64,000 nucleotides of DNA from Apostichopus japonicus (taxonomy: Eukaryota; Echinodermata; Holothuroidea; Aspidochirotida; Stichopodidae): positions 1,624,501-1,688,500 of the forward strand of contig NC_092581.1 of the NCBI RefSeq assembly GCF_037975245.1. Reading direction: 5' to 3'. Each line of letters starts with the position of its first letter. The stretch's first letter is position 1. Shown one piece after another: positions 7,542 to 61,098 of this stretch. The notes beneath the pieces were generated by a model. That model did not search any database, was not told the origin of the DNA, and saw nothing but the letters and a program-made list of their open reading frames with translations. The position numbers and the translations under genes were made by a program.

Positions 7542-7890
7542 CAAACTGTTGACTTATCCAAAGAATGGACTTCCTTCATTGGTTCATCAGTTGCTCCACC
7601 AGATTCCTCATCTAAGGGCAGTAAATCACCGGAAGATGAATCCTCCCTCTTCTTTCTCCTGGAAGCGTCTCCTCCGGCTAAGGATAGCGAAGGCAAGCTG
7701 AAACTGAGAGATGTATCCAGTGACAGAGTCGTCAATCTCTCCGACTTAGCCGTGCCGGTCGCATGGAAACCGGGTGAACCGTTTGGTATTCTGGTGCAGG
7801 CATCAGCAGAGAATTTCAGTAAGGTCGGAACGGCTTTCATGGAAGGCGTCTTAGAACTAGACGATGGACTTTACGTCGATCAGATTATCT
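7542..7890 (+). CDS. HLCS: HLCS exon a (first visible)
   Basis: Acceptor tttttag ends at 7541, with an in-frame TAG in the intron. The exon reads QTVDLSKEWTSFIG... to ...GLYVDQII in phase 0 and ends one base into a codon before gtaaat at 7891. It is serine/acid-rich and poorly conserved, as expected for the N-terminal region of HLCS. The phase-0 start requires an upstream coding exon. Confidence 0.85.
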
Positions 7891-10800: not shown

Positions 10801-13800
10801 GAAAAATTTCTAAGCTTTACAAAAAAATTTCCCTGTCTTAATAATTCCTCCACATGAACCATCACCATAGCAATACTTTCATCTGCTTCATCAGTTTGTC
10901 AAACTAGGCTGACAAAATATTGAGGCTGGCCTCGATATGTTTCAAGCGAAGTAAATTTTTCTCTGAAGAAAATTGGTCCTTATCTAGTGCATGCATCTGG
11001 ATTTTTTTTTGAAAAGTTGTCAGGCCAGAGCGGCCTGCCAGAATTGTTCTAATGTAGAGCCTGCTGGGAAAGTAATTGGTTTTTAATCCCATGTATACCT
11101 TGGACACAGGAGGAAGATGCTGAAATATGTGATGTGCATTCTTGTAATTCTCAAGTGGCATGTTAATCCAATCATTGCCCGTAGGCTTGAGGGCGGCATC
11201 AGTTTTAAGATGCGCTGAGGATGGGATCGACCGAAATTTGAATATATATGGTTACACAAGTATGTAAAGAGTATATAATGACCAACTTGAATAGCTTAGG
11301 CAATTAGTTGAGCTAGCAGATTGGTGATATGTCATTTTTTGTCTAATTGCCTACTAATTGCACGATGTAGCCACCATATTTTGACTAATTAAGAACCCAG
11401 TCGTTGACCCGCACGCCTTAAGAAGTATCTATCCTATTTCTTTGTTTTTAATAATGGGTCAAGAGGAGGGACGGTGTATCTGACCTTAGATTCAAAGCAA
11501 CTGGTTATATTTCGCTGCATTTGGGGATTGGGAAGAGAAACCTAAACCATATACCATTAGCATGGTAGGTTACAGTGTACGTTACAGTGTACGTAATAAA
11601 AGATTTTTACCCTGTCCGCTGAAAGTTTGCCACTTTTGTGTACTTGTACTCATAGCCTGGGTTTAAAATACTTGCTAAAAGTAACATAAATATCTGCAGT
11701 ATGCCTGTTGTTAATATATATGTATATGCATAGAAAACTGTGAGTTGAAATAACTTTCCTCAAAGAATTATGATAATTACTAGCTCATTGTTCCATCTAA
11801 CTTGCACGGTTGAGAAAGAGTGTTTTATGACTTTGATATGTCATGGAACAACAGCGCACGAGTTACTTTTGCAGAATGAAATGAGTTGATACAGCAGAAA
11901 CACACATAAACCCATATATAGTTGTATAAATCTAATGACAAGATTACATTACAAATAAAAGTGTTTAAAACTTTTTTAGCACATTAGATTCGTGACAAAT
12001 ATCATATACTCTGTAGTCAGTACCAGTATTAATCTGGAAAAATAGCTGTTAACCTGCTAGCAAGCCATGGCTATGTGTCATGTAATTAGAAACCTATATT
12101 TGTTGTCAAATATAAAACCCTGTTACAGCTGTGGCTACAGAAATACAGAGAACAGTTCTTGACCTTAATATGTCTGCTGGTAACAGGTCTAGGTGCAGTC
12201 TGTGTGTAGAATGTCTTTGCCAGAACAAAGTACCCCACCAATTCATGTCCTTTTTTGGGGGGGTTGCTAATTGTGTCATCAAACAAATTTCTCACTTGTA
12301 ATATATCAAGTGTCATCGTTTTATGCAAATGCTAGATGTGAACAAAAGTCATACACTGCCTAAGTGGACAAAAAATTCGTAAAAAGAAATTCGTAGTAAC
12401 ACTTTTTGAGGACGTTTGCAGCTGAAAAACTGTCTGTTTTCACTGAAATCATCCAAAAAGGCAAGCAAGGCTATAATTAACTGGCAACAAACTAAAGCTG
12501 GCCCCAGAGTTGGTTGGTGGATGTTTCAGAAAGAAAATAGATGAAAAACTTCCCACAACGTATTCTTTGTAACAGTGCAGAAATATCTAGAAACAGAAAC
12601 AGAGCTTTTTCTTAACAAAAGGGGGGATATCATTGTGCATTTGTGTTTGATGCTGTTCTTTCAAGTCTCCGTTCCCTTCAGTTAATTGATTTTGCTTTAC
12701 GTTGACATATATATTACATTATTTTGGTTTCATGGTTGTCAACAGGACCTATTACATATATTGTATGTTTCTGTCTAGACTCTGTTGAGTGCGATCTGCA
12801 AATTTTTACCTTATTTACGATCTTCTTCTTCTTCTATAACTTGACACTTTCCTTAATAATGTTATGTGGCTCCAATCATCTACAGATGCCTGCGAGACAG
12901 TTACACACAAAACTCTGGGCTACACATAGTGCATTTTGTTGAATCAGCCTGTTGAATTTTAAAATACAACTAAACAATAGGTATACTTTAGAGTTTGTTT
13001 GTGTTGCTATTCCACAGTGCAGTAGGTTTCCACCAATGTCATTTGACAAATTTTAAGTTTTGTTGGAGTTTGACAGATACAGTAAGTGCAGCAGTTTGTG
13101 CTGGGTTTTATCATGGAGATGTATGCATGTGCAAAGACTGCCGTGGTTAGGCTAATTTAAACCTGTCCACTTTAATGTATGGAAGTTGCCTGGAGTACCA
13201 TGGAGGTAGAACGGCAATATTTCAAGGCCCTTTGCTCAAAACTACCCTGCTATCTGCACAATTACTTTCTGTCTTTCTGGAACAACACTTTCAGACCTTA
13301 CGGCAAGATTTTTGGATGAATTTTTATTCCAGATTAGCTATATGTGTCAAATTAAGTCCACTGTGATGGATGGCAATTGACAAGATAAAAAAAGCCAGTG
13401 GGTGCAATCCATGTAGCCTATTAGTATGCTGGATGTATGTCTACAGGGATAAAACAAATTTATTTGCAAGAACTTTTCCATGTTTCATCTTTTTGAAAGA
13501 GCAATATTTTTGTTTAGAATTCAATTAAACCAGCTGGGTCCATCATGAAAAACAAGTTCTCTTCCTTAATTGATATACATTTTGCCACCTGAGGGGGCAC
13601 CACGGAGAAAGGACAGATATGGAGAGTTGGGGCTTACCCAAATCGTATTCAAAGTTTTGATCAGTTCCATGCAAGTTCTAAACATCATCAGTTAAACTAC
13701 CTTAATGTTTAATAACATATGCTAAATATTGCTAGATGTCTGGCAAATTTATTTTTGTGAAGGTCCTAACCCTTTAGAGAATTCTCAGACATTGAAATAT

Positions 13801-16800
13801 CTTCTATGCAACGTTGTCTAGACATTTTGCGTTTCACCAGTATTAAATTATGTTTTATACATCAGTGGCCGCATTGTTGTAGCTATAAATGTTGTAAATG
13901 CCTAAGGTGGGATTTACACTTCATACCTCTCAGGCTTTAACAATTTGAAAATAAAGGGATTTTTTTTTCTTCAAGCTTTTACTTTGAATCATGAGACATG
14001 AGACCCTTGACATGCATCGTCTGTCTTCTATCTGGAAATATCATTTTTAATATGAATAATGAACAAGAGGAGTCTTATCATGAAGATGTTTTTATTTGAT
14101 AGTTTTCATTTCCTCTTTTTTAAAATTTTGTCTGACAGCTGCCTTTGGTTGCATTGGAGCAGGTAACAGATGAGAATGCTAAATCATGCCTGCAACAGAT
14201 ATTGGCAGATGTTCTCAGCAGACTTCAGATAACGTGTCAACCAGAATGGAAATTACCAGACCTAACACCGTGCTTCCTGGTAGCAAATACTCCGGTGGGT
14301 ATATCATGCTTTATATAAACCATCGAGCGGTTTTTCGTGAAAGACGCAAAGATATTCTGTTAAATGGTTGTTATAGTTACCAATACTCCATTCAAACTAT
14401 ATTTAAGTCTGACATTAACTAGAGAGAGGGTAATTACTGCACATTAAGTCACATAGCAACCGTTCAAGTTTTTTCGGCAGTGTATTACAAGTTTACCAGT
14501 TCAATCTACCAATTAAATATTATTACTGTACAGTATGATCAAGTGAACATTTCATAATATATAAGCAATTAATGACTAATTCCCAGACAATTTTGATATT
14601 AGTTTTAACTTCACATTTTGCTCTGTACTGATCATGATTATCACACCAACTTTAAACCAACTCATGAAGCGTTCAAGTGCAACTCAATTACTGTAGCTTT
14701 ACTAAAGAATTTTATTGTCAAAATTACCACGAAAGTTGTTTGTATTTAAATTCAGAGTGTTATTTCTTTAGGCTGTTATGTAGACACTACTGCAACTTGA
14801 AGCAAATTCTTGGAGTAGCAAAGTTATATAAATTTCATGAATTTGTTAAGTACCGTCCTGTATGTTTCAGTGTACAAAATAACCGGGAGAGTGTGTTAGT
14901 CACATTTAATTGATATCAACAAACAGTTTGATCAAATATTTGCCAAGTTGTGTGAAATTGATTTAAACTACATCAACGAGTCACCACCATGTTTCAAGTG
15001 GCTAGTTAATGAACTGTTACTATTGCCTTGAAAAGTCATCAGTAATTGTCCCAAAATTTTACCCATGATAACAATTTGCTATAAGTTCCCAAGAGTACTT
15101 TTCTGAAAGTTGTAATCCCCCTAAATTATTCCTGACAATGAGGACGATCAAATGTCATTGTGTCGGTACGTACTTTTAGAAGTGGCACTAAAATGCTTGT
15201 TGACATTTGAGAGATTGGGTGACCACTATCTGACTTTCTAGGATATCATTTCTAGCATATCGTATTTGGGGCCATTTTCGAGACAGTACTGATGACCTTT
15301 GATAACAAGTGAGGTGAACTGTGAAGAAGTAATTGCTGCATGTAAAGATTGCTAATTGTCACTTTCTGCTCTTCTCTTCATTGCCAGGCAACCAATAGTG
15401 CCTTTCACAACTCTGTCAAACCCCTCCTTCAGAAGTCCATCCTGAAAGCTTCACCCGTGTCACTTTTCTTTGCATCCAATTTGGCGGAAGCGGAAGACAA
15501 AGTCAGTGCGGACTTGCTGACAGTCCTATCCGATATGTCACCTTCGTCTTCTGCGTTCGATGTCGACGTCTACATGAAGAACTTAAAGAGCAAAGTCCTC
15601 GGTAACGTGCTAATGTACATCGAAGTAGTTCCCACGACGATGACATTATTCGAAAGGTGAGAGCTAGTATTGAATAATCCCTTGAGGTTTGATCACTTCT
15701 CAATGCCATGTCTTACTCTTCTATTTAAGCAAGCTATATCTTTCTGGGAATGTAATTTCGTAGAGTACAAATATAGAGATTTCAAACACATAGGAATATT
15801 TACATAATGTAATATGCATGAAGCATTTAAAGGGCAAGCTACCGGTCTCCAATTAAGTTTGTAAAGATCGTAAAGATTCTACGATGATGACGATGACATT
15901 TGAAAGGTGAGAGTGCAATATAGTTTTTCAGCAGTTCTGAGAGGTTTCCACATGCAGTGGCACATTTACAGCTCATATTAATATGAAGCTTAGGTCATAA
16001 ATCTGGGAAAGGCAATTTATCAGAATGTGAGAAACACAGCATTCCATGAAAGGATATTTACATAACACAGAAAAAATGAAGGATTTTAAAGGGTTAAGTC
16101 CCTAAGTAATCTCATAATGTACGCCAAAGCCATTCTCACAGCGATGACTTTTATTGGAAAGGTGCCACGGGACTCCTTGTAAGTTTTCATAACTTCTGAC
16201 GCATCTAGCTTTTGTTAGTCCTAATTTCTGGGAATGCAATTTATTGCAGTGTGATCTACAAACACTGCAATCCATGAAAGGTCATGTACATAATGCAATA
16301 TACATGAAGAATTTATAGACCAAAGTCCTATAAAGTAATTTCGTAAATGTACAGGTTCCTAGGTGATGACTTTATCCAAAGATTAGAGAGGAATTCTTTT
16401 GAGTTTTGGCTGCTTCCTATACTTATACCTATGCCCTTTAAATTAATAAGACCAATATTTTAAAATTTTATTTTATTTGAGTATGATAGCAAAACAAAAT
16501 AAGAAATGAAGACATATTTACATGATTGAACGAATATAAAGATCCTCATTGTCGCCTCAAACAAACCTGTGACCTTTCACTACCAAATGGACCTCAGGGC
16601 TTTTGGTACCTCAGACTGGCATTGTTTTCCAAACAGGGCTCTGGTTCCCAAGCCAGTAAACTGGAAATGTGATGGCCAAACAATTCTATCAAGTTTTCTG
16701 CTATTGAACTCATTTTAGATAAAATAGCTAAGTATGTTGATTTTCTGAATGTAGTAAGAGTCAACCACATGAATAAGTTTACAATGTTGATGAAAGAATA

Positions 16801-19800
16801 CAATCCTGATTTTTACATGAAGAATTTCAAACGCCACAAATTTATTGGCACAGCAATCTATAAATATATGTACAATGAAGTAGTTGGCAATAACAGTGAC
16901 GGAAATTTTGACAGTAGGAGGTATATACCTCTCAATAATTGTATAACGGCTCGTCGTTACAGCCCTCTTTCGTAAAGAAGATACAATCTCATGGCTCTTG
17001 GTGCAAAACATTCAGTCAATTTCGAAAAACAAAATGTGGCCAACAAACGTGTACATAGCTCAATCATGTGTCTCCATTATTAAATTAGAAGTATCTGGGC
17101 TGAATTAGGCTATGCGTATTCTCGACTGTTTGCCAGTGCTTCCTTGGGTGCTTGTACAAACAATTCATATATTTAGTCCTGGATCAGTTCAGTACAATTA
17201 CATTTTGCTGCGTGCGATCGAGGGGATTTACGTCATTCATATCACAAGTCCAACCGAAGCAAAGTTTATAGGGAGGGTATTATTGCTTGGCAGCGTTCTC
17301 ACATTAAATATAAATTTTGCATCAACCACTTGATCGTAGAAAATTATATCCTCCACTTCCTCCTCTTCACCCCATCTCCAGCCTTCCACTAACCCTCCCC
17401 TCCCCCATCCCTCCTCCCCTCCCTCCTCCCCACGGTTTTTAACGGGATTGGTTAAATATGGTAATGTGAACAGTATATGCGACCTTCATATTTTATCGGA
17501 GTACTGGGTTGTCACGAATATTCATAACTTCAATTGATATTTTGGTAAATTCTACTGTCTTTGTCACTCTTTTTCTCTCTCTGTTTTTGTTTTTGTTTTG
17601 TTCTTTTGCAATGTTTTGCACATAGCTCATGTTGGTCCTGTAGATCACACACAACAGCAGTAGAGAATATCATTTCATGTTGCACATAAATCTCTTCTTT
17701 CCAAATGATCATGGCATGTGTGAGTGATAGATCTACTAGTACCTACAGAGATGAGGCCATTTATTTCAATTTATAGCTCACCTTACCGTTTCGACAGACA
17801 ACTTCATCTTTTCCTCTGTTGACTCTTTTCACATTGTATTTGACATTATATTGGTTTTGACAAGGGCCTCTAACAGCACTAACATTAACTCTTGTGTCAT
17901 TACACTAAAAGGTCCTGTTGCCATGGTGATGCACATTCCTATAACTTGAAACCCTAGAAAAGATGGCGTATTCTAATGTTAAATGGTGGCTTTTATACCT
18001 CAAAGGAATAGCACAAAGATCGATTTCACAATAAACTCAAACTGTCATACTGGGAAGCCGCTGTATAAACTCTCGGTCTCGAGGCAGCATTTGACATCGA
18101 TTTAGCAATAGATCTTCCATGCAGTATGGGTACCAATATCCCATCACTATGGAATTCACGAGCTAGACATTTCAGATAATGAAGACATTTCTGAGTTCCT
18201 TTATTGCATGATGTTTGTTTGTATATTGATGGGTAGGTGTACAGTAGGGCTGGAGGATTCAAGTCCACAGTTTCCCAGACTTGGCTAATTGGACATGGAA
18301 TCCTTGCACTTGGGATTATATCCAGACTGGGATTAGTGGGCGAGTCCAATCGAATCGATATATTATATAGATGTTGAAATTTTAGTAGAATTAAATTATC
18401 ATTAATCATAGTCATCATTAGGTAAAATTGCAAGCAGTGTTTGGAGGGTTTAAAGTAATTTCCATGGTCATGCAAATTTGTTTAAAAGCAAGAAAAATTT
18501 TTGATTCTTTGCATTAGCCTTTTATTGCCCCATTCATTATAAATACATCAGCAATCATTTTTAAGGGTATCATTTGTAACAATTTGTACTTCACAATCAT
18601 TGCGGTATACATTTTTATGCCAAAATTTTGGCCTAATCTAAAGGCTTAGTTTGATATTGTAATGGTTGGATAATGTGTTTACAAACAGTGCTTCGAAGTG
18701 CTTTGGAATCTTATTTGCTATTCTATATGTAAATGTTCCATTTCTTGCAAATTAGCAAACAGCCATGAAACTAAATGCATCAATGCATTTGGAGACTTTA
18801 TAAAATATGGGTTTTCAGAATTGAGATAGTGATGTACTGGATAATCAAGCTGTTGGTGTAGATAGGGTTAGAATACATCACAATTAATCAGGCTTCCCTG
18901 TTTTTACAATGAAAGTAAACCATCCAGCAGGCAAACTAAATTGTCATGATTTTCTAAAGGTCTTTGTATTATTCAAAACTGGCACTTTTCTAGGACACAA
19001 ACACTAAGAAAAGTACATGTTTAGGCTAGTTGGGTACTTTTAAGACCGTTTCATTGCATGTCTCCCTTTAGGCAATAAGTCTGTGAAAAGTGAAAAGTGA
19101 AAAACAGCAAATGGAATCACCATCTGTTTGACGCTATCAACATTTCAAACCTGCCTACCTCATGCTTGATCGATAGTCTGGTGATTCATATGCTTGTAAG
19201 CACTTACAAACATAAAGTATCTGGTGAATTAGAAAACCAGTTATTGTCAAAATAACATTACTTTATCACCATGGTGATTTAAATTGTGGAACATGTTTTA
19301 TGATGTGTCTCGTACAAACTTAATTTTAAAGTATCATTTCATACTCCAGTTTTGAATTTTTTTAAATGACATAATTATAGTTTTTGTAGTATTATTATCA
19401 ATGATGACCTAATTATAGTCCTGTATTCAAGTGTAATTCTCTTTTCAACTTGTTGCCAAAATAAAAACCAAAAAAAAATGCCTCTTTTTTTATTATGTAT
19501 GGAGTGATATTTGCAGAGCAACAATGTTGAAGGTTGTATACTTTTGTTTCATTTTATTTGCATGTTTTTTTTTGGTATGTTTTGTTTTGAGACATCTTTT
19601 TAGAACTAAATGTAAGTATGTTAATTGCCCTTTGTCATTTTAGAAATAATATCATGTAGTGTCAATAGCACACATCTTGTCTGCATTCGTTAAGCAACTA
19701 AAAGGATTATGTGTTAAAGTTTAATTTCGCTCAGTGATCATACCTATAGTTGTGAAACAGAATTACACATGCAGTAAGAAATCAAACACTATGATTGAAG

Positions 19801-22800
19801 TGTCAGTAGTGTGACAAACAGCTGCAGTCTTTCAAGGCATTGAAGATTCGCCCAAACCCGTGCCGCACTCTGAAAAAGTTAACTTTCAGTTGCTTGCAAG
19901 TTAAGTTTTCTGCTTGTCGCTACAAATTGTAGACAGTAATGAAACGTGATACCTTGTTATCTTTAGCTGGACCTGAGATGTCCTTCGCTGTATCGTTTAT
20001 ACACTGTGCTGTGGGTATTGATCTCAGCTGTAAGTACTGACTGTACACTAGTGTCTAATTACCGATGGTAGCAAGCTGTGTGTCTATTTTCTGGGATCGA
20101 TGGTGGTGTCTAACACATTCGAAACTAGGTCAGATTACCGGCATAAGACGTTTCTTTTTATGCGAGTCTTCACACACTTTAAAGGTATCAGTTATTCTAA
20201 AGCTATCCTGACACTGCAGTGTTTGGTTTACAAGGTATGTTTCACATTGAAGTGTATACAGTATATCAAAGACAGGTTTGGAACTTTTCAACCAAAATTT
20301 CACTTTATGTACATTTCAGACACATTTTCTGTGTCAAGAAGATGTCAAATGAGCTATGATCTTGAGAAGGATTTCTAACCATGTGATCTGTCTGTGTCAG
20401 CAGTGTGACAAACAGCTTGCAGTCGTTAAAGATCGTAGATTACTAAGAACTTTTTGAAGTCACACATATTGGTTTCCTGATCTTCCATGATAAACTAGGT
20501 CTGGTTAAACCGTCCTATCACATACACCCTGGTTGTGTCCCATGCAGTCTGCTAAACAACTCTGCCAATTATAAAATATAATATCTACCCATGGAGAACC
20601 TTCTGTCAGGCTTTGGTTCTCAGTTACTGAAAGGTGTTGAACAGATTCGCTCTCAGTTGCTGTCACTTTTTCACCTGGCAAACATGTCAGCCTACACTGT
20701 TTAGTAGTTGCTAGTAAAAACAGCTTAGCTATGATTATCTCCAACTGATTACCTATAGTTTCTGTTGGTAATTGCTATGTACCCTTTTCTTGGTTTGAAC
20801 ACCCAACGAAAATGAATGGAATATAAACTACATAGTGCTTAAATGAGATGAGTTTATGTGAACAATAATGATTCTGGCTTATAACTACACGATAAGACAT
20901 TCCATAAAGTGATACTTTTTAGATCTTTTTCTCATTTTGCCCTTTGAGTCATCCACATCAGTTTAGATGTTAGCTATTGTTTATATAGTTACATGCTAAT
21001 AAGAATATCAAATGATAACTTTTTTCCTTAGTGTTGATCTTTCTTGTGTGAAATGCAAGAATGGTTTATAAGTTTTTCATGTGAACTACTATAAAATGCT
21101 TTGATATATGGTTGGGAATAAGCTGGTTACACTATCAATGGCCCTGGCTGCCTGTCTGCAGGAAGGTATTAGTTATTCTAAAGCTATCTGATACAGTGTT
21201 TAGTTTATAAGGTACATTTCACATTGAAATGTATATATCAAAACAAGTTTGGAACTTTTCAACCAAAATTTCTGTCTTCACTACATATACATTTCAGACA
21301 CATTTTCTGTCTCAAGAAGACATCAAATGAGCTAAGGTCTTGAGAAGGACTTCTTAACCATGATCTGCCTGTCTTCAGCAAGACTTGAACAAGTCTTTTT
21401 GTCCGATCCTATCAAAAACGCCAATACTCTCTTCAAGAAGATATCAATTATTAAAGCTTTGCGTCATTTTATGTTATCATGGAATCTTGACTTTGCAATA
21501 TCTAGTATGAAAGATAGCCAATGGAAGTGTAGGTATCTTGCCAAACTTAATAGGATGTGCAGTTTGCCAAGATCTCTCTGAACTGCGATGATGTTTCTCA
21601 CATCGTAATACTTCACCTAATAGTATTGTATGAATTAGCTCAGAAAATAAAGATATTATCTCTGATTTATGGCAATCTTGCTTATGTTTCATTTCAAAAT
21701 TCATCTTGTTTGCTGTTCTTTCAACACTAGAGTATTTAGCCTCTGGTACTGTTTAATGTCCTCAACTTGATATCTATAACTTGATATCATAAAAAGGACT
21801 CAATACTTATGACAAGTACCTTAACTGCTGGTAAATCCGCCTCTTCAATTAAATCTGCTTGTCAACACTGTCTCTTTGTGAGATTATAGATTTTAGGTTA
21901 TCAGTATTTGGCCCCATAGGTTAACATGCTAAAAAAATTGTTTAAATTTGAATTAGGTTCTTTTTTGGATATATCTGCAAAATATTTCTAAAAAATTTAG
22001 GGATGATGAGATTTGACGACTAAAGGACTCATTAGAGGGAAATGTCTCGACTGTGGAAGGAAACTGCATGTTACAGTTGGAGGCAAAAGCTTCCTTTCTC
22101 TTCCTTGCCTTTCTAACATATTTTGGGGAGCAAGACTTCTGGCCTTCAAGATGTTTATCGTCAGAAACTAGTCGTAGCTGTTTGCAATTTACTCTGATGG
22201 AAACGGAAGCTTGTCGGTAATCGAACAGCAACAAATGCAGCTACTTATCACTAATGTAATTTACGACTTTAAAGTGACATATTCACATTCTATCTCAGGG
22301 GCCTTCGCTTTTGATCTCGTGTATCTTTATTCACAGCAGAGTTATGCACGATGTCGCGGCTGCAATTTGTTGTGAGGGTATATCTCGCTTGTTTCTCATG
22401 GATTGGTTATTTGAGAATCTTATGTATCTACTTTGATAAGGCAGTCTCTGTCTCTTAGTGAATAGCAAAAGTACAGTGACTTAAAACAGATTACCGATCC
22501 CCAGCTGTTGAAGTTTATACTCATAGCTAAGACCTTGATGAGGTATTCCATTCCCTATTCTTTCTGTTTCATATTGCCTAAGCGACTTGGTTTATGAGAT
22601 ATGAAATCCTGCTGGGTTTGTCACCTTGACACTAATGGCACGTTTGGCTGGCCATGCAGCGGGGGGGGGGGGGAGATATAGCATGAAACTGGTAGAAGAT
22701 ATTTTAGTAACAGTGCAGGAGATTATGTGAAAGTCATATACCAGTATAAAGTATATATTGGAGCCCTCATAAAGTTATTATCACAGCAATAATCACACAT

Positions 22801-25800
22801 GTATTTCTACGTTTCACTTACCATGAAACAAGGTCTACCATGTGAAGCATATGGCCACCACTATGCATGATGGCATCGCAATGAAGTGAAAGACGTATGA
22901 CATTTCATTGCTCAGGTTCGGTCCATTGCTATGACAACATTTGGAAGAAAACTATTAAGTAATTGCCACAAAAGCAGCTGTGAATATGAAATCATTTTGC
23001 CACAGCTACTAGAGATTAACTTCATGTTCTGTAGGTATTGCGGCCATTTTTACAGTTGCTAGGGACTAAAGACCAAAGTTTGAAGAGCAAGTTTATAATG
23101 TAGTCCTTGTGAAGTATATATACAAACTGTACATTGCAAATATTCTTTCTCATAATAGTCTCATCCAGAGGATGGTTACAAATCTCAGGAAACTTTGTAC
23201 TTTTCAAAGCAAACATCAACACCTTGCCAAGACAAGATAGGAATGCTACCTTCAGGGTCAAAAGACCTAAAAAAGCTTGACTTCCTTCAATGGATTTTCC
23301 CATTTGGTGTAAAGTAGACAGGTTAAATTCTCTATATGAACAAAACATCACAGTAAAACAAAATATGGTACCCCCTGCTGTAGGCCTGCACACATTCTTC
23401 AGTCTCCAGAATATTTTGAGCACAATACTCCACAAAGTTTGTAGCATCCCTCCCATTTTAAGTATTTTGCCCAACTTCACAGCAGCAGTTCTCAAATCAG
23501 ACCATTCATTGGTTGATAATTGGTCAAATCCTTTCACCTCTATATGTTTTCATGCAATAAACAATAGTGTTTGGTTTGTTTTGTTTATTCAGCATCATCA
23601 AGGCTGAACATCTTTCTCCAATGCAATTTACAGTGACATTGAAAGCGTCCATTTTAAAATCTTGGAACCCTCCATGCTTCAGCATTTTATATGATAGTAA
23701 TACCAGCTCTCTTCATATTTTACTCCTTTATTACTCACAGTTATTGATGGTGTGAAGTTTTCGAAATACTTTTTGTGCTAATAAGGTGGTGCACATAACA
23801 GGAGGTACCATTCATGTTAGCAATAATTCTTTCTTCTAATTTACAACAGTTAAGCATTTGACTCTGTGTTCTCGTTGCTAGAGAACAGTCTGAGGTGTAA
23901 AGGTATAGACAGTTTAGAGTTAGTGACATGGTATGTTAACATTTTCTCCTAGCCTTATATTTATAGATTTGGGTGAAAGAAATACATTATCCAGAAATAA
24001 AGATAAAAGATTTACTGTTGGTGTTTTTCTTTGAAAGTTTGTATATTTTTCACCTTGTTTTCAGCTTTATGTTCAAGGTGCCGAAGACTGTTGGAGCTGT
24101 TGCGGTAGCCTCCAGACAGACGAAAGGAAAAGGTACGCAAACAGTTCCTCCCATTTAACATCTTTCCTGGCGAGAAGTTATAGCTGATTGAAGTACAATG
24201 TAATGATGGTCCACGGTGTATTATGATGTACAGCATCTGCAGAAATGACGTAATAGAATTTGTGTAAACATTTCACCATGTCGTTACTGTAGGCTTAAGC
24301 TTTTGCTAGTGAGGTTGAAACAAAAATAAAACGAGTTTTGAATTTTAATAGAAAAGTCCTGAACTTTTTTTCCATTTGGAATTGTTTTTGTTTTTCTTAG
24401 TTTCCATAAGTACTTGAATAGTAAATACCCTTCTTTCAAGTGTAGAATATTAGGAAAAGCAAACAGATACTGTTGAGAACAATTTTTAACATGCTGAAAC
24501 AGAATACCGAATATGTGATAGGCAATGATATCTTTAGTATGTGTCCTTAAGTTAACAAGAAAGCTAGGAACTGTATTTTATGTCAGACATAGATAAGTAT
24601 TTTTCCCAAAGCCAAAATGCTAAAGTTGATCATTAGAATTAATACATTTCAATTATTTCCTTCTTTCAGGACGTGGAGGCAACAAATGGCTTTCACCTCT
24701 CGGTTGTGCGATGTTCACAGCGCACGTCCAGTTTCAAAGTGGTACAAAGCTAGGCTCGAAACTTCCTTTCCTCCAGCACATGCCAGCGTTAGCAGCCGTG
24801 GAGGCTATCCGTACCAGACCAGGCTATGAGGTGAGGGAAATTAAGATGTCAGCAAATTCAGGGATGTTCTGGGTGTTTAAACGAAAGTTACATCTTTATT
24901 TCATGTAATAGAGATGCTTCTGATGAACAACACTATGTCAAAATGTTTAAATGTTCTTCAGAACAAGCCCCCAGTACAAATAAATCTACAAAATGATTGA
25001 ACTGCTTCTGTTTCTTTTCGGTAAATAATTTAAGCTAGTTCCCCTGAAGTATTTCTCCTGGTTTAATCTAAAGACATAACATTGTGATGTTGCAGACTTT
25101 TTCTAAACTACTCAATCTACATGAAATTACCTAGATACGGTTTCCATGACATCCAAATACAAAGGTAAATGAAATAGACTTTAGAGACACCTTGACAAAA
25201 GTACTAATCATTGCAGAACCCTTTGCAGTTCCTAATTTGATTTGATAAGATTGTAAGGAGATAGATAGGCATTATCTGTGTGCGGGGAGTTCAAACACCT
25301 TGATGCATTACGGGAGCGCCTCTACAAATGAGGGCTAAAGGGAAGAATGTTTGTGCAAATTTTCTCAAAGGAAAAGAAAGCCACATCCCTTGGGTGGCAT
25401 ACTAAGGGTAAACGTCATTAAGCCATTGCCAAAACTGCAAATTGAGCCTCAGTGATAAAGTTCAGACAGACATTTGAAAGTCGTTGAAAGGAGCGGTTCG
25501 TTTAAAATGCCGTGAAATTTACGAGATTAAAGAATTTTTTAGTCTGTTATTGCTTTGTTTTGGGTTTTTGATGTGAATTTAATTTCTTTAGTTTTTCTTC
25601 TTCATTAAGATCATTAATTTGGACTAGTCTTAAAAAGGAAAATAAAAGATATATTTAAAGAAAGAAATTAAGTAAATGGAACCGAAATTGTCTTTATACT
25701 GTTCCTGACAATGGTGATATAGCGATATGGTGTCTCTAATTTCACAAAGTTTGTTTATAGTGTTTTACACCAACAGAAGTATCGTTAAATTAAAAATAAA

Positions 25801-28800
25801 ATTGAGTAATGCTGTCAGGAAAAATAGAATTCCAACTACTTTTTCAGCAACTAAGCAAATATAATTGACTGGTTTGACTAACACTAAATCCCAATTTATC
25901 TATATCTTTCTTTCCAGGCGCGTAGCCAGGAATTTGCCAAGGGAGGGGCGAAACTGTAGATTCGGCATTGAAAACTATCTAAACGTAGCGCCACCATGGT
26001 TGGTGCGAAGCGTACAAGAAAATTTTGACTGAAAATGACTCCCAGATCGCTGGAAATGGCACTTCTCAGGCCTTGTTAGTTGCATCTTAGCATTTTCTCT
26101 TTTGAAAATACTAGCGATATCATAAAAACATTAAAAAAATTTTTTTTAAATATGCTCAAGGGGGGGCGCCCCCCCCTTGGCTACGCGCCTGTTTCTTTCT
26201 TCATTTTTGTTGTTTGTTTTTGCTTTTCAGAACCTGGACTTAGGAGTTAAATGGCCCAATGATATCTACTTTGGGGGTAAACAGAAAGTCGGTGGTGTTA
26301 TGGTGAAATCCAGTTGTATGGGTCGTGATTTCCATGCTCTCGTTGGTAGGTGTAACCTTCTCGAACAACATCATGATTTCGCAGAACGTCATGACTTTCG
26401 TTCGTTCATTTTTCATTCATTTGTTTATTTCCAGCAAGTATCAGCTGTTATGGAAGTATCATTGAACAAAGACCAGTGTGTATGTGCAAAGTTTATCATA
26501 TTGTAACTTTATTGTGTGGAAAAGTAAGAAGTACGAGCAACACTTAGTAATCTTTTCCCATTACTTTTGTCTCAAGATGTCTCAGGATATGACTAAAACA
26601 CACTTGAAGAGTAAAATGAGGTCAATGGCAGTCAATGACAAGTTATGTCAGCCTCTACTCAAGCATATAAGATTTCAAATTGTGGATTTCTAGTTGACAA
26701 ATACCGCTTACGTTATTAACCTGCACAGGAAGAAATTTGGAAGTTTTTCAGTCGCTAAAAACTTCTAGCAGTTGTGAACTTGCACATGGAGGTCCTTCAT
26801 GATTAATTCATATTTGCATATATAGTTACCAATAGCAACCAGTATGATTTTCCTATGTCACCTATTCCTATGTAGTTTTCCTTATGATTCAGTTTTACTA
26901 TGGCTAACAGCAATACTACCCATGTCTCATCCTTACAGACTCAATTCTGTCCAGTTGGGACAACTTTGCAATGCTTATACCACTATATACTGTCCTACGG
27001 TATCATGCTTCAGAGCACTTGTACTGACAGTATGAACAGTTCCTTTCATCTGATAGAAACAGGGTATACATACTGTCAGTACAAGTGCTTTGAAGCATGA
27101 CATAAAAAGTACAGTAAATAAAAAATTGTCCCATCTGAGTGCACAATTTTAGCAACAGCATTTGCATAAAGTTATCCATAGCAACCAGTATGATTTAACT
27201 ATGTGGTCTATCTAGCTCTTGTCATACTGTTAGGGATCAGTGTCGTTGTTGCCAGCAGACAATTACCCTTTTCTCTCATTCTTACTTTTCTCTCATTCTT
27301 AGTAGCATTTGCATATACTTACTAATAGCTTCCGATATGATCTTAATGTGCTGTTTATTTTCTTGTCCTTCTCTTAGGGATTGGGTTTAATGTTGCTAAC
27401 AGCAAACCTACCCTCTGTGTCAATGACATCATCGAGGAATACAATGAGAAAAATCAAACCGACCTTTCACCTCTCAAAGTGGAAGAGGTCATCGCATGGA
27501 CGCTGACAGTCCTGGAGAAGATGATTGACGACTTCCAACGTGAGGGACACCTCCAGTTCTGTAAACATTACTATCAGAGGTGGCTTCACAAGTGAGTGAG
27601 ATGGTATATCAAGGATTTGAGATCTTTATGTACGATGAAATATCATATCAAAGTGACACAAAATGAAAATACCAGTGACTGGATCTGGGGACCATCAAAA
27701 TTACTCCCCAGTCCAGACAATGTCTAACCAGTTTGAGAATTATCAACATTATCCATTTTCAGTTAGTTACAATCGAAACATTTGAAGAACAATGACATAT
27801 GAGAAATATTCCACGTCCAGTCTTCCATTTTGTTTTCTCTGACAATAACCTGTTTCGTCTTGATACATCACTCTAATCGTAAAAGCTGATGAAAATATTT
27901 TGCTATTTCTACCCAATATAGTTTGAATAAATGCAGTGTTGACCATGTTCTGTTCCGTAATGTGTTCAATCTCCTGGCCATGGGTGCACTTAATATTCTA
28001 TGCTGTAACACACATGACCTTTGTACTCTTGGCAGCTAACAAGATGGTTGTGATAATAGTTACAACCCTCCCACAATGAAATTTAGCTGAATGGTTCCAA
28101 CCAGAGTGAATCACACAGCATCCGATCACTCCTTTGCAACACAACAGAAATAACCATTCATTACATGGAGTGGATTATGTAGTTTACTACAAACTTTCTG
28201 ATCAATACAGAAATAAACATATAGCTTTAGTTGACCCTTTGCTTGCTTTATTTGATTCCCTGGTTGCTAGGGCTGAATAGAAAAAACCGATTGGATAGTG
28301 GTATGACTAGGCCTGGAAAAGTTAACCTAAATCATACAAGTGGGGTGTGAGTGCTGTAACCTAATTCATTCATGTAAATTAGGTTTTGGTTCACCATGTT
28401 TACTATAAATTATTTCTAATTGTCACCACATCATAGCGAGTTCATGATTCATCTCGTCAAGATATCACATTTAACTTGACGAGTCATCAGATGTGGTGTG
28501 TTTGACATGTTGTTGACTTTAACACAGAACACAATAAGTCAACAATTATAGGTACTTATTATGATCAAGATGTGATGCGAATGTAAAGTCAACAACTACT
28601 ATGTCTTTGATGTGTCGTCATGGTGACTGTTAACCAGCCACTCAAAAATTTTCAGATTTCTGTTACATTAGCGTAATTTGTCAACTGTATAAATATCTTA
28701 TTTTTTGGTGTTTTGTCAAGTTTAGTGCATTGCAGTAAACTCCACAAATTTGGTCAAGATGCATTAATTCCTTCAAGTTGGCAACTTGACAAAAAAATTA

Positions 28801-43500: not shown

Positions 43501-46039
43501 TTACATTTGACCAACCCTCCCCCCCCCCCCCCCTCCATTAATATATTTCCTTGTACTCAGTAAAAATGTGCCCAAGGTAAATATCATATGTGTTTTATTT
43601 TTGAACAACCCCGTGATCCCTTCTCATGTTACAAACAGTCACTCGGAGGTAGTGGAGGGGTGCATTCCTATATAATTCGGCCCATTACACTATTTAGTAC
43701 ATACATGAAAACCCCCTGCAGGAACAAACTAAATCAGTTCCCTATTTTTGCAAATAATCGGCGAAATACATGTTAATAGCTTAAGGTTTTGCCATGATCT
43801 TAAATTAAACAGATCGGGCTAAAAAATATCTTCTGATGAAGTTATGTTCAATTTCATGTCCAGGTGCATTTACGATTATACCCAAGGCAGGAACTTCTGA
43901 TTCGTTCGACGATCATTTTAGAAGAGAAGTTGATAATAACTTATCGGAGAATCCATGGATTGCCGAATACAGAGAAGAAGAAGGTAATAGAGTCAGCGAT
44001 TGTCCGGCTTTCGAATCTCTGGTCGCGGATGCTGTTGAAGTGATCGCACGAGGACTGGACAGACTTTGTGTTTCGTCTTGTAATTCTTCAGATCTAGTAA
44101 GAAATAGACCCTTACTTCAGAAATATTTAACAGGCGTGAAGTTCCATAGCAGTGCTAATGGTCCTGTCTTCTTTCCCGAAAATGGCGACCCACCTGGGAG
44201 ATATGACATCCGCCAACTGTACAAGGATCACCAAGGAAACTACAGCTTCCGAACAGTAGGGAATTGGACTGCCAACGGTGGACTCGAAATTACCCCTCAA
44301 GTGGCATGGTTTGTTGAAAATGTCTCTGGGCGATACAGTAGTAAAGGAATACCCAAATCGATCTGCTCGGATCCTTGTCCAACTTACCAACGGCGTGTAT
44401 TCTCGGAAGATCAGCCATGTTGTTGGCAGTGCGAAAATTGTGATGGCGACAAACTCGTCATCGATTGGACTTGTCAAAAGTCGTGCATTAACCGTACATC
44501 GGGTGTCTATCAATGGCCGAGTCAAGATCGGAAAAAATGCACCGATTTGGAAGAATTGCCAATAGCTAAGACGGGAATGTCTATCACAGTTATTTTGATA
44601 GGATTACTTGGAATGATTTCAACCTTAACCGTGTCTTTGTTTTACGTTCAAAAACGAGAAGAGAAACTTGTGAAGGCCTCCAGTCGTGAACTAAGTTATA
44701 TTATCTTGGTAGGATTATTTTTTAATTACCTATCAGCGGTCATTTATAGGCTGAACGCGAGTATCACGGTGTGTACACTTAGCAGAATAATACCGCACGT
44801 GGCCATATCTCTAATCTATGTCTCCATTGCAACAATTACCGTTAGATTGTTTCGAATCTTTAAAGCGGGGAAAAAGTCCATTAGACGACCAAGTTTCATC
44901 AGTCCGAAGTCCCAAGTGGTTACAACTATGCTCCTATCTTTATTACCTGTAAGTATGTTTATGTTGAAATCCTTTAAATATGTTTCAAAAGATGTATTAA
45001 ACTTTATGGCACGCCAAAATGGACTAGCAAATATTACGTATAGTGTCCGATTTGTTAACAGGACGATATAGTGATTCAATCATTGTTAGATATATGCTAA
45101 TATGGCCACAATATTTAAAAAAAAAATCATTGAACAAAAATTAGAATTTTATAGCTTTGATTTTTTTAATATGTTGTAAAATGAAATCATATATCTACAA
45201 ACGGACACATAGACATGAAACTGCATTTTGTTTCCTATCAACTTCGGTGACGTCATGACAGACGATTGAGTTCTTTTAGCCATAGTTTGCGGATGATTTC
45301 GGGCAAGGGGAGGTGGGGAATAACATTTAATATTCTCCTGACTGATTAAGGTAGGCGTTGAACCTATACGGAAGAGCCGGGCGAATGAAGGGTTCATAAA
45401 GGAGGGACTATATGTCCCTGTGGTCGTTGAAGCCGACTCCCATTTAGTGGGTCTGTCCATGGTCCTCCTAGAATTTGGTATTAAAAAATTACACCTTTTT
45501 ACTACCTGTTACTACTTTTTACTACCTGTTTCGATCAGAAAATGGTGACTTTGAATTTACATGAAAGTCTGACATAGAAATATGATAAGACAAAATAGTG
45601 TTTATAGAGTTAATTTTAAGCCTTTGATTTTGAAAGTTTTGGTACCTCCACGCATGCTGACCTACCAATGTTGTCTTTGAAAGAATAAGGAGTTCTTCAG
45701 GCCTGTTATTATCACTTATCAAATTGATATGCATATTGAATTATAACAATGACGGTATACTTGTTATCCTGTCAGGAGACATCGAAACTAAAAGAAAATG
45801 TTATTCTTCAATTAAAAAAAAAAAAAAACTTGCTTATAGTTCACACACGTATATAGCAAACACAAACAGACTTTGATATATTTGTTGTTGTTGAAACATC
45901 CTAGATATAAAGAAAGGTGAATACTCTTTTCATCACGCATGCGTCTTCCGTCTAATTACTAACCAGCCATTTCCTATATAAATAGACTTGGTTACAAATG
46001 CACTTTCTATGGGAATGGTGGAGAGTATATATATATATA

Positions 46040-46095
<56 letters not shown>

Positions 46096-46138
46096 TATAT
46101 ATATTTATATATATATATATATCTGATAATATCTAATA

Positions 46139-46184
<46 letters not shown>

Positions 46185-46472
46185 ATATAAAAAAAATCCA
46201 CTTCACGACCGGTTTCGTCCCTTTGGGACTCATCAGGCGAAGGTAGGAATCGAATCCCGGATCTCGTGTCACGAACCGAAGTCCGTATACCACTCGACCA
46301 CAGTGATTCTACTGGTGTGTTAGAGCGTATAAATTGGCTTTGAATAACTGTCATTAAGGGCGTATTACCCAAGTGTTATGATTGTACAGAATGCACCCCT
46401 GGCGCTTTGAATCTGACAATTTTACACAGAATAACCACTCTTGATAGGCAAGCCAAGCCGTAAATAATAATT

Positions 46473-46556
<84 letters not shown>

Positions 46557-58173: not shown

Positions 58174-58665
58174 TGATTTGACTGCTTTGAGATCATGTAT
58201 CACTGGCAAAATGCGTCGAGCTCCCTCTTGCGGCCTCGTTTTTGGTCAGTTTTTAACTTCTGAGGAACAATAGGATACCGAAAAACTTTTAGGGTGAACA
58301 AAAGATTTCAAAACCTTTGTTCGTCCAAAAAGTTTTTCGCTCTCCTATTGTTCCTATGAAGTTAAAAACTGACTAAAAACGAGGCTGAAGAGGGCGCTGG
58401 ACGCATTTTGATCTTTTATACGTGATTTGACTGCTTTGAAATCACGTATCACTGGCAAAATGCGTCGAGCGCCCTCTTGCGGCCTCGTTTTTGGTCAGTT
58501 TTTAACTTCAGAGGAACAATAGGATAGCGAAAAACTTTTAGGACGAACAAAGGTTTTGAAATCTTTTGTTCGACCTAAAAGTTTTTTGCTCTCCTATTGT
58601 TCCTCTGAAGTTGAAAACTGACCAAAAACGAGGCCGAAGAGGGCGCTCGACGCATTTTAATCTTT
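58174..58665. repeat. Two tandem ~240 bp units, each a long palindrome
   Basis: Each unit begins tttgactgctttga and cactggcaaaatgcgtcgag, then runs gcggcctcgtttttggtcag, acttc..gaggaacaatagg and aaaaacttttagg. It then mirrors itself back to cgaggc..gaagagggcgct and gacgcatttt. Unit 1 arms are about 58210-58300 and 58315-58412; unit 2 arms about 58459-58552 and 58560-58661. Foldback DNA of this kind is usually MITE-derived. Confidence 0.85.
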
Positions 58666-58720
58666 TTTTTTTATCTTTTCCTTTCTGAGGTAGAAATATT
58701 AGATACGAGCACTCTTTTTC

Positions 58721-59455: not shown

Positions 59456-60670
59456 AATATATTTTAAAAACACCTAAGTCCCAACAACTGGATCTTTAAA
59501 TATTTGAAATGCATCCAACAGTAGCATCTCACCTAATGGTTTGGTGGTAGACAAACAAAAAAAGCATCACAAGGTCCCTGGTTCAATTTCAACTCATGCT
59601 CTTCTTTTTTTATTCTCCCAGTGAAAGCACAAGTAATAAAAAAAACTCACCACCGATTTTTCACATATTCTTTTGAAGCTTACAAGTAAAAAAAAATAAC
59701 CAAAACTTGCATATAAACTATGTCCACTTAGTGCCAACAAAATATTGCATCTATATCAAACCCCCAAAAGAGAGGAGTTTTAGCATTCTCTAGACAGGGG
59801 GCAAAGAATTGTGATTTTCTTGCCATATAATTTGCACAAAATTCCACTTGACTATCTGACTGATGTAGAGTCAAGTGAGTTAACATTTGTGCAAGAATTA
59901 AGTGGGAACCAGAAATGATCAGACAATTCAAGCTCCCTAGACCACAAAACATGTACTAACTCACTCTTTAGACATCAACCTATTCTGATAACGTTTTTAC
60001 AGTACATAAGTTTTATGGCCAAAAATGGTTTAAAACCCAGAAAGAACAGTCTTCCTTTTATGTGAAATATAGACTCATAGATGTTGAATATGTATGAACA
60101 AATGGACATTAACTTTTACCTTACTTTGAGTTAGCAAATCAGCTCTGCCACCAACCTACCCCTTCAATACACTAAAATATTTTCAAAACCAAAGCCATGT
60201 AGTATATATACTACACAGAAGAAGGCAACTTTTCAGACAGCCTGTTAACCCCCTTGAGACTCAACTAGTGACAACTGCCAGGGATCACTTGAGGTGTGTT
60301 TTAAGATCATCCAACACATGATTATCACTTCTGAAGCAGATATCATTTACCTGATTGACTGTTTATGCATTGTTCAAGGTTACTTCAGACCTATCTGTAA
60401 TTTGAGCCACTTCACAAACTAAAACTGAAGTTGACCAAATTATGTTCACCAAAAGGAAATGATTGCAATGGAGAACTCACAGTGGTGGCACCATCATACC
60501 AGGTGTGCGATTACATGAGGATAATTGCAGCTTTGATTTTGAAGCTAAATATGTCGACAAGAATTTCAGGCTTTTGGCAGCTGATGACTCCAATTTACAT
60601 TTGACCTCTTAACAGAACTGCTCAAAGTGTAATGCTCAGTGAGGGGGACCTACCACCTAACTATGACATT

Positions 60671-61098
60671 TTACCGATGCTACAGATGTTCACTAAACTC
60701 AACTATGAGGTTTTTGTATTTTGGCCGCTGATGACCTCAATTGACCTTTGACTCCGCTCAATAGCTGGAGCAGCCAAAGAATTCAGTGCTGTAAATTTAC
60801 ATTCTAATTTGCATGAAATTCATGCAAGATATGCTTGGTGAGTCACCCCGTTTACAAGTTGGAACATCACATATACATACGTTTACCGATGCTACATATG
60901 TTCACTAAACTCGACTATGAGGTTTTTGTATTTGGCCGCTGATGACCTCAATTGACCTTTGACTCCGCTCAATAGCTGGAGCAGCCAAAGAATTCAGTGC
61001 TGTAAATTTACATCCTAATTTGCATGGAATTCATGCAAGATATGCTTGGTGAGTCACCCCATTTACAAGTTGGAACATCACATATACATACGTTTACC
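60671..61098 (+). repeat. 212 bp tandem duplication
   Basis: Units 60671-60882 and 60883-61098 are nearly identical (ttaccgatgctac, gaggtttttgtatt, ggccgctgatgacctcaatt, gaattcagtgctgtaaattt). A more diverged relative lies just upstream at about 60560-60670 (ttggcagctgatgactccaa). It is a young local duplication on an older unit. Confidence 0.9.

What the first reader, a model, noticed from the sequence alone, without database searches (positions are those of the whole stretch)
46191..46315. tRNA-like SINE carrying a complete minimal hammerhead ribozyme in a receptor intron
All core nucleotides (CTGATGA, GAAA, cleavage C) and three stems are present on the - strand, directly behind an A/B-box tRNA-like head. 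Hammerheads are established in Penelope-like elements and small animal retroelements. A Pol III-type head joined to a loop-less-stem-III hammerhead suggests a non-autonomous retroelement whose transcripts self-cleave, probably as dimers.
Basis: partly seen in the sequence, partly recalled or inferred. Interest (0 to 1): 0.75.

Follow-up and report, generated by a model that had tools for sequence, protein, structure and literature searches.

The report
Penelope-type SINE with self-cutting RNA
A small parasitic DNA element in an echinoderm genome joins a tRNA-like promoter to a predicted self-cutting RNA and carries the insertion marks of Penelope retrotransposons, which points to the unknown machinery that moves this kind of element in animals.

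Summary
Window 46242-46201 (minus) is a type I hammerhead (RF00163, 38.1 bits, E 4.8e-6), directly behind correctly spaced A and B boxes. It is one copy of a large family: 317 exact matches to the ribozyme core pattern in the window's own genome, none to the reversed pattern. The repeat unit is 341 bp, not 100-150; the window insert spans about 46183-46474, between two (TA)n tracts. The host is an echinoderm by mitochondrial code and gene order.

The new point is the insertion anatomy: 73 of 88 free 3' ends fall at two sites (unit 28-37 and 57-71); 68 of 88 run into (TA)n; 22 of 24 adjacent pieces are head-to-head, none tail-to-tail; inserts hold up to 2.33 tandem units. These are published hallmarks of Penelope-like elements (PLEs). 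16 of 18 GIY-YIG loci examined here also end in (TA)n. I read it as a PLE-dependent SINE/retrozyme: tRNA-like head plus PLE-type tail. Cleavage as a dimer, Pol III transcription and circular RNA are inferred. No PLE sharing the tail's sequence was found.

The parts
46183..46474 (-). whole insert: one copy (about 0.83 unit) of the 341-bp element family; aligned body 46189-46472
   Evidence: L009 aligned to the tandem unit of L017, unit positions 60-341, 95.1% identity; (TA)n on both sides
46475..46554 (.). (TA)n tract on the 5' side of the insert, read as part of the target microsatellite
   Evidence: TRF, 40 copies, 100%
46026..46182 (.). (TA)n tract on the 3' side of the insert, read as part of the target
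   Evidence: TRF, 79.5 copies, 86%
46469..46476 (-). 5' junction: TAAGAATT after (TA)n resembles a short inverted copy of the second 3'-end site (weak, 8 nt)
   Evidence: read from the sequence against the unit
46290..46300 (-). A box TGGTCGAGTGG of the tRNA-like head
   Evidence: conservation in 64 copies
46246..46256 (-). B box GATTCGATTCC (majority of copies: GGTTCGATTCC)
46201..46242 (-). minimal type I hammerhead ribozyme; predicted cleavage between 46207 and 46206
   Evidence: RF00163 38.1 bits, E 4.8e-6
46208..46213 (-). stem III, palindrome ACCGGT without a loop
   Evidence: sequence; ACCGGT in 56 of the 59 copies whose core motifs could be read, 64 scanned
46189..46196 (-). T8 run after the ribozyme (T5 in most copies), a possible Pol III terminator
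   Evidence: sequence; T5 in 68 of 93 matches, T1-T3 in 10
46183..46188 (-). letters between T-run and (TA)n; most of the 27 nt that lie there in the unit are missing or changed in this copy
   Evidence: comparison with the unit

Best explanation
A non-autonomous retroelement, a SINE or retrozyme that depends on Penelope-like elements. Each 341-nt unit has a tRNA-like head (A and B boxes), a minimal hammerhead and, 3' of it, two reverse-transcription start sites (TTAC|TA and TTCT|TA, 37 nt apart). Proposed cycle: transcription (Pol III from the head with read-through of T5, or Pol II read-through; inferred) gives unit or multi-unit RNA. Two ribozymes pair through the palindromic ACCGGU stem III and may trim or circularise it (inferred). 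A PLE protein (RT plus GIY-YIG) nicks a (TA)n microsatellite on both strands and starts cDNA at these sites. One strand gives a direct, 5'-truncated or multi-unit copy; both strands give the head-to-head pairs. Shown: repeated family, unit, two 3' ends, (TA)n association, head-to-head bias, PLEs with the same end habit in the same genome. Inferred: the PLE as the machine, RNA cleavage, polymerase, circularity.
For: Repeated family: 40 places scored of 1013 candidates, all E <= 7.6e-62; 317 exact core-pattern matches, 0 in the reversed control; 39 of the 39 RF00163 loci examined, of 59 listed, belong to it. 3' ends (62 loci, 90 pieces): of 88 free ends 47 at unit 28-37 and 26 at 57-71; 68 of 88 have a TA run of 12 nt or more within 40 nt, against 33 of 1247 background 60-nt windows. 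In the 25 loci chosen by ribozyme score: 25 of 33 pieces at these two sites, 21 of these 25 with TA. Single-orientation inserts with TA on both sides: 21 of 44. Adjacent pieces: 22 of 24 head-to-head, 0 tail-to-tail. Inverted partners are more alike than the mean of other inserts in 34 of 39 segment comparisons. Inserts of up to 2.33 units in one piece; the segments of L017 are identical or nearly so. PLEs: 37 GIY-YIG matches; two long ORFs carry RVT_1 and GIY-YIG; 16 of 18 loci examined have a TA run of 10 nt or more after the ORF, mostly at recurring end letters; one PLE family has two end sites 31-32 nt apart, the first 57-58 nt after GAAAC, against 37 and 55 here. Literature: the Anolis PLE cuts and extends both strands, prefers AT-rich DNA and starts at two adjacent sites; its ribozyme cut is 26 nt into the ORF and its start site 111-118 nt, that is 85-92 nt after the cut, with a tail of 30-40 bp between starts (PMC11167929, main text). 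Here the second site lies 82-89 nt and the first 45-52 nt after the cut. Head-to-head pairs, an optional 31-bp tail, AT-rich targets and pLTRs that carried a foreign gene are PLE features in PMC3846280 (passages).
Against: No PLE sharing this tail's sequence was found: the two compared fit no better than chance (13 of 300 and 27 of 300 shuffles score as high); only 18 PLE loci were read. No matched background was computed for the TA runs after PLEs. The ribozyme is nearly uniform (40 of 80 copies identical), so covariation cannot support its structure; one copy shows a paired change in stem III. The head is not accepted by tRNA models at default. T5 would be expected to stop Pol III inside the unit. 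The window copy's own two-strand minimum is an inactive duplex. No RNA data. Published work found the ribozyme unnecessary for insertion in vitro (PMC11167929), and PMC3846280 explains head-to-head pairs by self-priming on an antisense template, not by two-strand priming. Tandem units were more alike than other inserts in only 17 of 26 comparisons. The first copy set was chosen with a query holding about 40 nt of TA repeat, which favours TA-flanked copies. Some loci are probably segmental duplicates counted twice (L014/L023, L015/L031, L061/L063). 15 of 88 3' ends lie elsewhere.
Confidence: 0.72

Rival explanations
1. The hammerhead is a passenger: it sits in the RNA region that a PLE protein binds, and the element moves as uncleaved linear multi-unit RNA; no circular RNA is needed.
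For: Ribozyme mutants of the Anolis PLE still insert, and no in vivo RNA ends were seen at its cut site (PMC11167929). Only 2 of 90 pieces have a 5' end at unit 318-330, around the predicted cut after 323.
Against: Core motifs intact in 45 of 50 distinct sequences, though copies were partly chosen for this; animal retrozymes are known as abundant circles (PMC7229834, abstract and passages).
Confidence: 0.35
2. An ordinary tRNA-derived SINE moved by a LINE; the ribozyme and the TA repeats are incidental.
For: A/B boxes, scattered 5' ends, high copy number; another tRNA-type SINE lies at 35420-35180.
Against: Two 3'-end sites, head-to-head pairs in 22 of 24 adjacencies, tandem units and TA-run flanks. 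No LINE was compared.
Confidence: 0.08
3. The TA tracts are tails made by stuttering reverse transcription at the element's own TATATAT, or later slippage, rather than the target.
For: Both 3' ends lie at or beside TA-rich letters, so primer and template could slip; head-to-head inserts have two 3' ends and would show TA on both sides anyway.
Against: 21 of 44 single-orientation inserts have TA on the 5' side as well, against 33 of 1247 background windows; PLEs here share the flank.
Confidence: 0.2
4. A satellite amplified by unequal crossing-over, as hammerhead satellites of newts were first described.
For: Tandem 341-bp units; a local group on C1 near 12.1 Mb.
Against: Copies are dispersed over many contigs, mostly under one unit, with clustered 3' and scattered 5' ends.
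Confidence: 0.03

Closest known systems
SM-alpha / Sj-alpha SINE-like retroposons of Schistosoma
   Same: tRNA-related sequence (tRNA-Gln) plus a type I hammerhead; a 335-bp relative; more than 10,000 copies estimated (PMC2770079, PMC8490949, PMC4918200, passages)
   Different: echinoderm host; tRNA models do not accept this head at default; minimal ribozyme with loop-less stem III, whereas the schistosome one is a fast ribozyme with tertiary contacts (PMC6155905, passages). Insertion ends of SM-alpha were not compared here
Metazoan non-LTR retrozymes (Cervera and de la Pena 2020)
   Same: type I hammerhead, 170-400 nt unit, tandem copies, non-autonomous (PMC7229834, part 1 of 6 and passages)
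   Different: tRNA-like head; minimal ribozyme; PLE-type ends, whereas a 2020 review says the repeats show no conserved motif that reveals the partner (PMC7761336, passages)
Penelope-like elements with minimal hammerheads
   Same: minimal ribozyme, two adjacent RT start sites or optional 30-40 bp tail, AT-rich target, head-to-head and tandem copies (PMC11167929, PMC3846280)
   Different: no RT or endonuclease; 341 bp; tRNA-like head
Helenus / Cassandra small-RNA-headed TRIMs
   Same: tRNA or 5S promoter captured by a non-autonomous retroelement (PMC10886601, passages)
   Different: those are LTR elements; the passages seen describe no ribozyme in them

Membership tests
Type I hammerhead ribozyme (RF00163) | core CUGANGA, GAAA, H17 and three stems; score over the curated cut-off | tested here: met
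   38.1 bits against 34
Type I hammerhead ribozyme (RF00163) | self-cleavage | not testable with these tools
   only folding energies: double hammerhead is the co-fold minimum for two family ribozymes, not for the window copy
tRNA-derived SINE | tRNA-related head with A and B boxes | tested here: inconclusive
   boxes and spacing met; tRNA models not at default, a poor hit at lowered threshold
tRNA-derived SINE | 3' tail shared with a LINE | not tested
   no LINE was compared; the ends found are of PLE type
Metazoan non-LTR retrozyme | type I hammerhead in 170-400 bp tandem units, non-coding | tested here: met
   341-bp tandem units; frames from the ATG in the core vary from 6 to 109 aa among 85 matches
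Metazoan non-LTR retrozyme | canonical ribozyme with loop 1-loop 2 contacts; circular RNA | tested here: inconclusive
   ribozyme is minimal with no loop on stem I; circular RNA not testable
Penelope-like insertion | two adjacent 3' ends 30-40 nt apart | tested here: met
   47 and 26 of 88 free ends; 37 nt apart by sequence
Penelope-like insertion | head-to-head and tandem copies | tested here: met
   22 of 24 adjacencies head-to-head, 0 tail-to-tail; tandem units
Penelope-like insertion | AT-rich target | tested here: met
   association only: 68 of 88 free 3' ends against 33 of 1247 background windows; target against tail not fully separated
Penelope-like element (autonomous) | RT and GIY-YIG in one ORF | tested here: not met
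   the unit is 341 bp, too short for either
Derived from one of two PLE families of this genome | sequence homology of the tail | tested here: not met
   13 of 300 and 27 of 300 shuffles reach the scores

The most novel reading that the evidence does not exclude
A SINE of a kind not yet described: a tRNA-headed element whose tail is a Penelope-type module (hammerhead plus two internal RT start sites) and which is copied by a GIY-YIG Penelope enzyme into (TA)n from both DNA strands, often from multi-unit or circular RNA. It would be to PLEs what classical SINEs are to LINEs, and would name the machinery behind animal retrozymes. 'Not yet described' means: not seen in the listings.
Probability: 0.6. 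Interest if true: 0.82.

Novelty: new variant of a known kind. Interest (0 to 1): 0.68.

Why it matters
Which enzyme copies animal hammerhead retrozymes is open: the authors of the field suspect PLEs from co-occurrence but state that the repeats show no motif that reveals the partner (PMC7229834 and PMC7761336, passages). Here the inserts themselves carry PLE-like insertion marks, and PLEs with the same (TA)n habit live in the same genome. That turns a suspicion into a direct test: one PLE protein, one 341-nt RNA, one (TA)n target.

Tried and rejected
Tried without result: scan of viral contigs for the core pattern (0 hits; not expected to hold animal elements); ARAGORN and Rfam tRNA models on the head (a poor hit at lowered threshold); sequence homology between this tail and two local PLE families (not significant); Rfam for hammerheads in those two PLEs (none at E up to 10; motif matches only); a reading frame from the ATG inside the ribozyme (6 to 109 aa among 85 matches, so not claimed as a gene); covariation (too uniform). 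In one search several copies score best against another hammerhead family, RF02275 (about 40 bits, below its cut-off of 52). Not tried: LINE tails, SM-alpha insertion ends, other echinoderm genomes. I searched print in an open-access library; none of the listings that I saw showed a PLE-dependent tRNA-headed retrozyme, but two key papers (Cervera 2014, Ferbeyre 1998) are not held.

Full report
The feature is real. The Rfam scan of the window found one match over threshold, a type I hammerhead at 46242-46201 minus (38.1 bits, E 4.8e-6). An A box (46300) and a B box (46256, one mismatch) with tRNA spacing lie just upstream; 60 simulated sequences gave no such pair. The head fails tRNA models at default and gets a poor tRNA-Thr drawing at a lowered threshold, so I call it tRNA-like only. 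The host gene is an mGluR-like class C receptor on the plus strand, so its pre-mRNA carries the complement of the ribozyme.

Host. The assembly has 671.6 Mb in 35 contigs. Contig 35 (16,099 bases) begins with COX1, which reads through with NCBI table 9; AAA stands for N at sites such as STNHKDIG, which I know from recall as conserved. Then follow frames that I recognise as ND4L, COX2, ATP8 and ATP6 (gene names, and that this order is echinoderm and that flatworms lack ATP8, are recall). Other codes were not compared in a call. A sea cucumber is my guess from chromosome number and mitochondrial size; that is recall, not a test.

Family. The window stretch has 40 scored places of 1013 candidates, all of which lie in the 37 regions that I fetched. 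The core pattern occurs 317 times exactly, the reversed control 0. Of 59 places listed for RF00163 (50 over its cut-off; 74 scored of 66307 candidates) I examined 39, the 30 given as loci and 9 more; 39 of 39 belong to this family. For the end counts I used L009-L075 without five duplicates, 62 loci; a few more look like segmental duplicates and stayed in (L014/L023, L015/L031, L061/L063).

Unit and ends. Tandem copies repeat at 341 bp. In unit coordinates: A box 231, B box 274, core 294, cut after 323, T-run 334, TATATAT 28. The T-run is internal. Of 90 pieces, 88 have a free 3' end: 47 at 28-37, 26 at 57-71, 15 elsewhere; 68 of 88 have a TA run of at least 12 nt within 40 nt, against 33 of 1247 background 60-nt windows in the same loci. 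By sequence the two sites are TTAC|TA and TTCT|TA, 37 nt apart. 5' ends are scattered over the unit; 2 of 90 lie at 318-330, around the cut. Because the first query held TA repeat, I repeated the count on the set chosen by ribozyme score: 25 loci, 33 pieces, 20 at the first site, 5 at the second, 8 elsewhere, 21 of the 25 at these sites with TA, 6 of 6 adjacent pairs head-to-head. Over both sets 22 of 24 adjacent pairs are head-to-head, one is plus-plus, one minus-minus, none is tail-to-tail. Among 44 single-orientation inserts 21 have TA on both sides, which favours TA as target over TA as tail.

One event, one RNA. Inverted partners resemble each other more than the mean of other inserts in 34 of 39 segment comparisons, eight of them from L017; tandem units in 17 of 26, which is weak. 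In L017 the tandem units are identical and the inverted partners identical or within 1.4%, as expected from one multi-unit or circular template. A tandem genomic source would explain it too.

Ribozyme. 80 copies hold 31 distinct sequences, 40 copies are identical. Stem III is the palindrome ACCGGT in 56 of the 59 copies whose core motifs could be read (64 scanned), ACTGGT in 2 and ACGCGT, a paired change, in 1; three of the 59 have T instead of C at the cut. One family ribozyme prefers an inactive fold (-11.2 kcal/mol); two co-fold into a double hammerhead with a 6-bp stem III (-26.5). The window copy differs from the commonest sequence by one letter that lengthens stem II; its co-fold minimum is a long inactive duplex (-32.3), so activity of this very copy is less certain. 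The unit circle folds to -92.6 kcal/mol, z -2.56 against 30 mononucleotide shuffles, 61% paired.

The PLE link. GIY-YIG gave 37 matches (150 of 626 candidates scored). I read 18 places, two with 3.8 kb and 16 as about 1-kb stretches from the endonuclease onward. The two long frames (910 aa; and 835 aa, whose start runs into (TA)n and is probably 5'-truncated) carry RVT_1 and GIY-YIG. 16 of 18 have a TA run of 10 nt or more after the ORF; L090 and L096 do not. The runs begin at recurring letters, but no matched background was computed. One PLE family ends at two sites, TTCTAC|TA or ATTGCC|TA, 31-32 nt apart; its first site lies 57-58 nt after GAAAC, in this element 55, with 37 between sites. 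In the other family a minimal hammerhead-like motif, CTGAAGA...GAAAGCTC, is seen by pattern in L086, L101 and L102, and a variant in L087; Rfam does not report it in L086. The first family keeps only half of such a motif. Sequence similarity between tails is not above chance, so the partner may be a PLE family not yet read, or the likeness may be one of layout.

Literature. In the Anolis PLE the ribozyme cut lies 26 nt into the ORF and a start site at 111-118, so 85-92 nt after the cut; the tail between two starts is 30-40 bp; both DNA strands are cut and extended at AT-rich DNA; the ribozyme is not needed for insertion in vitro (PMC11167929, main text read in two parts). In this element the second site lies 82-89 nt and the first 45-52 nt after the cut. 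The ATG inside this core is not at the same place as the Anolis start codon, so I compare from the cut. Rotifer PLEs show head-to-head pairs as the commonest inverted arrangement (explained there by self-priming), an optional 31-bp tail, a liking for simple AT-rich targets, and pLTRs that moved an unrelated gene in trans (PMC3846280, passages). PLEs as movers of animal retrozymes are proposed from co-occurrence in PMC7229834 and PMC7761336 (passages).

Verdict. A new variant of a known kind: a retrozyme or SM-alpha-like SINE in an echinoderm, with insertion anatomy that points to PLE machinery. The PLE reading is likely (0.72); Pol III use, dimeric cleavage in vivo and circular RNA remain inferences.

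Noticed in passing
window 35420-35180 (-): A second, ordinary tRNA-type SINE with A/B boxes and a (CATA)n-like tail.
   Followed up: partly
window 26999-27104: A hairpin of about 100 bp, weakly like mir-2024 on both strands (below its cut-off), most likely a small inverted-repeat transposon.
   Followed up: no
window 7542-26506 (+): Exons of a biotin-protein ligase gene upstream of the receptor (Pfam hits at 8866-9786 and 26150-26506).
   Followed up: no
window 58174-58666 and 60670-61098: Two direct duplications, 249 bp and 211 bp, of two copies each.
   Followed up: no
L061-L064 (C1 near 12.1 Mb): The element recurs with the same neighbours, so several copies there look like segmental duplicates.
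   Followed up: partly
L073:1331-1553 (-): A copy without TA flanks that ends at unit 160, an exception to the end rule.
   Followed up: partly
L085 and L086: Two long Penelope-like frames with RT and GIY-YIG, one in tandem, one probably 5'-truncated, both beside (TA)n.
   Followed up: partly
L070:2070-1998: A tRNA-model hit (44.8 bits) beside a family copy, a tRNA or another SINE head.
   Followed up: no
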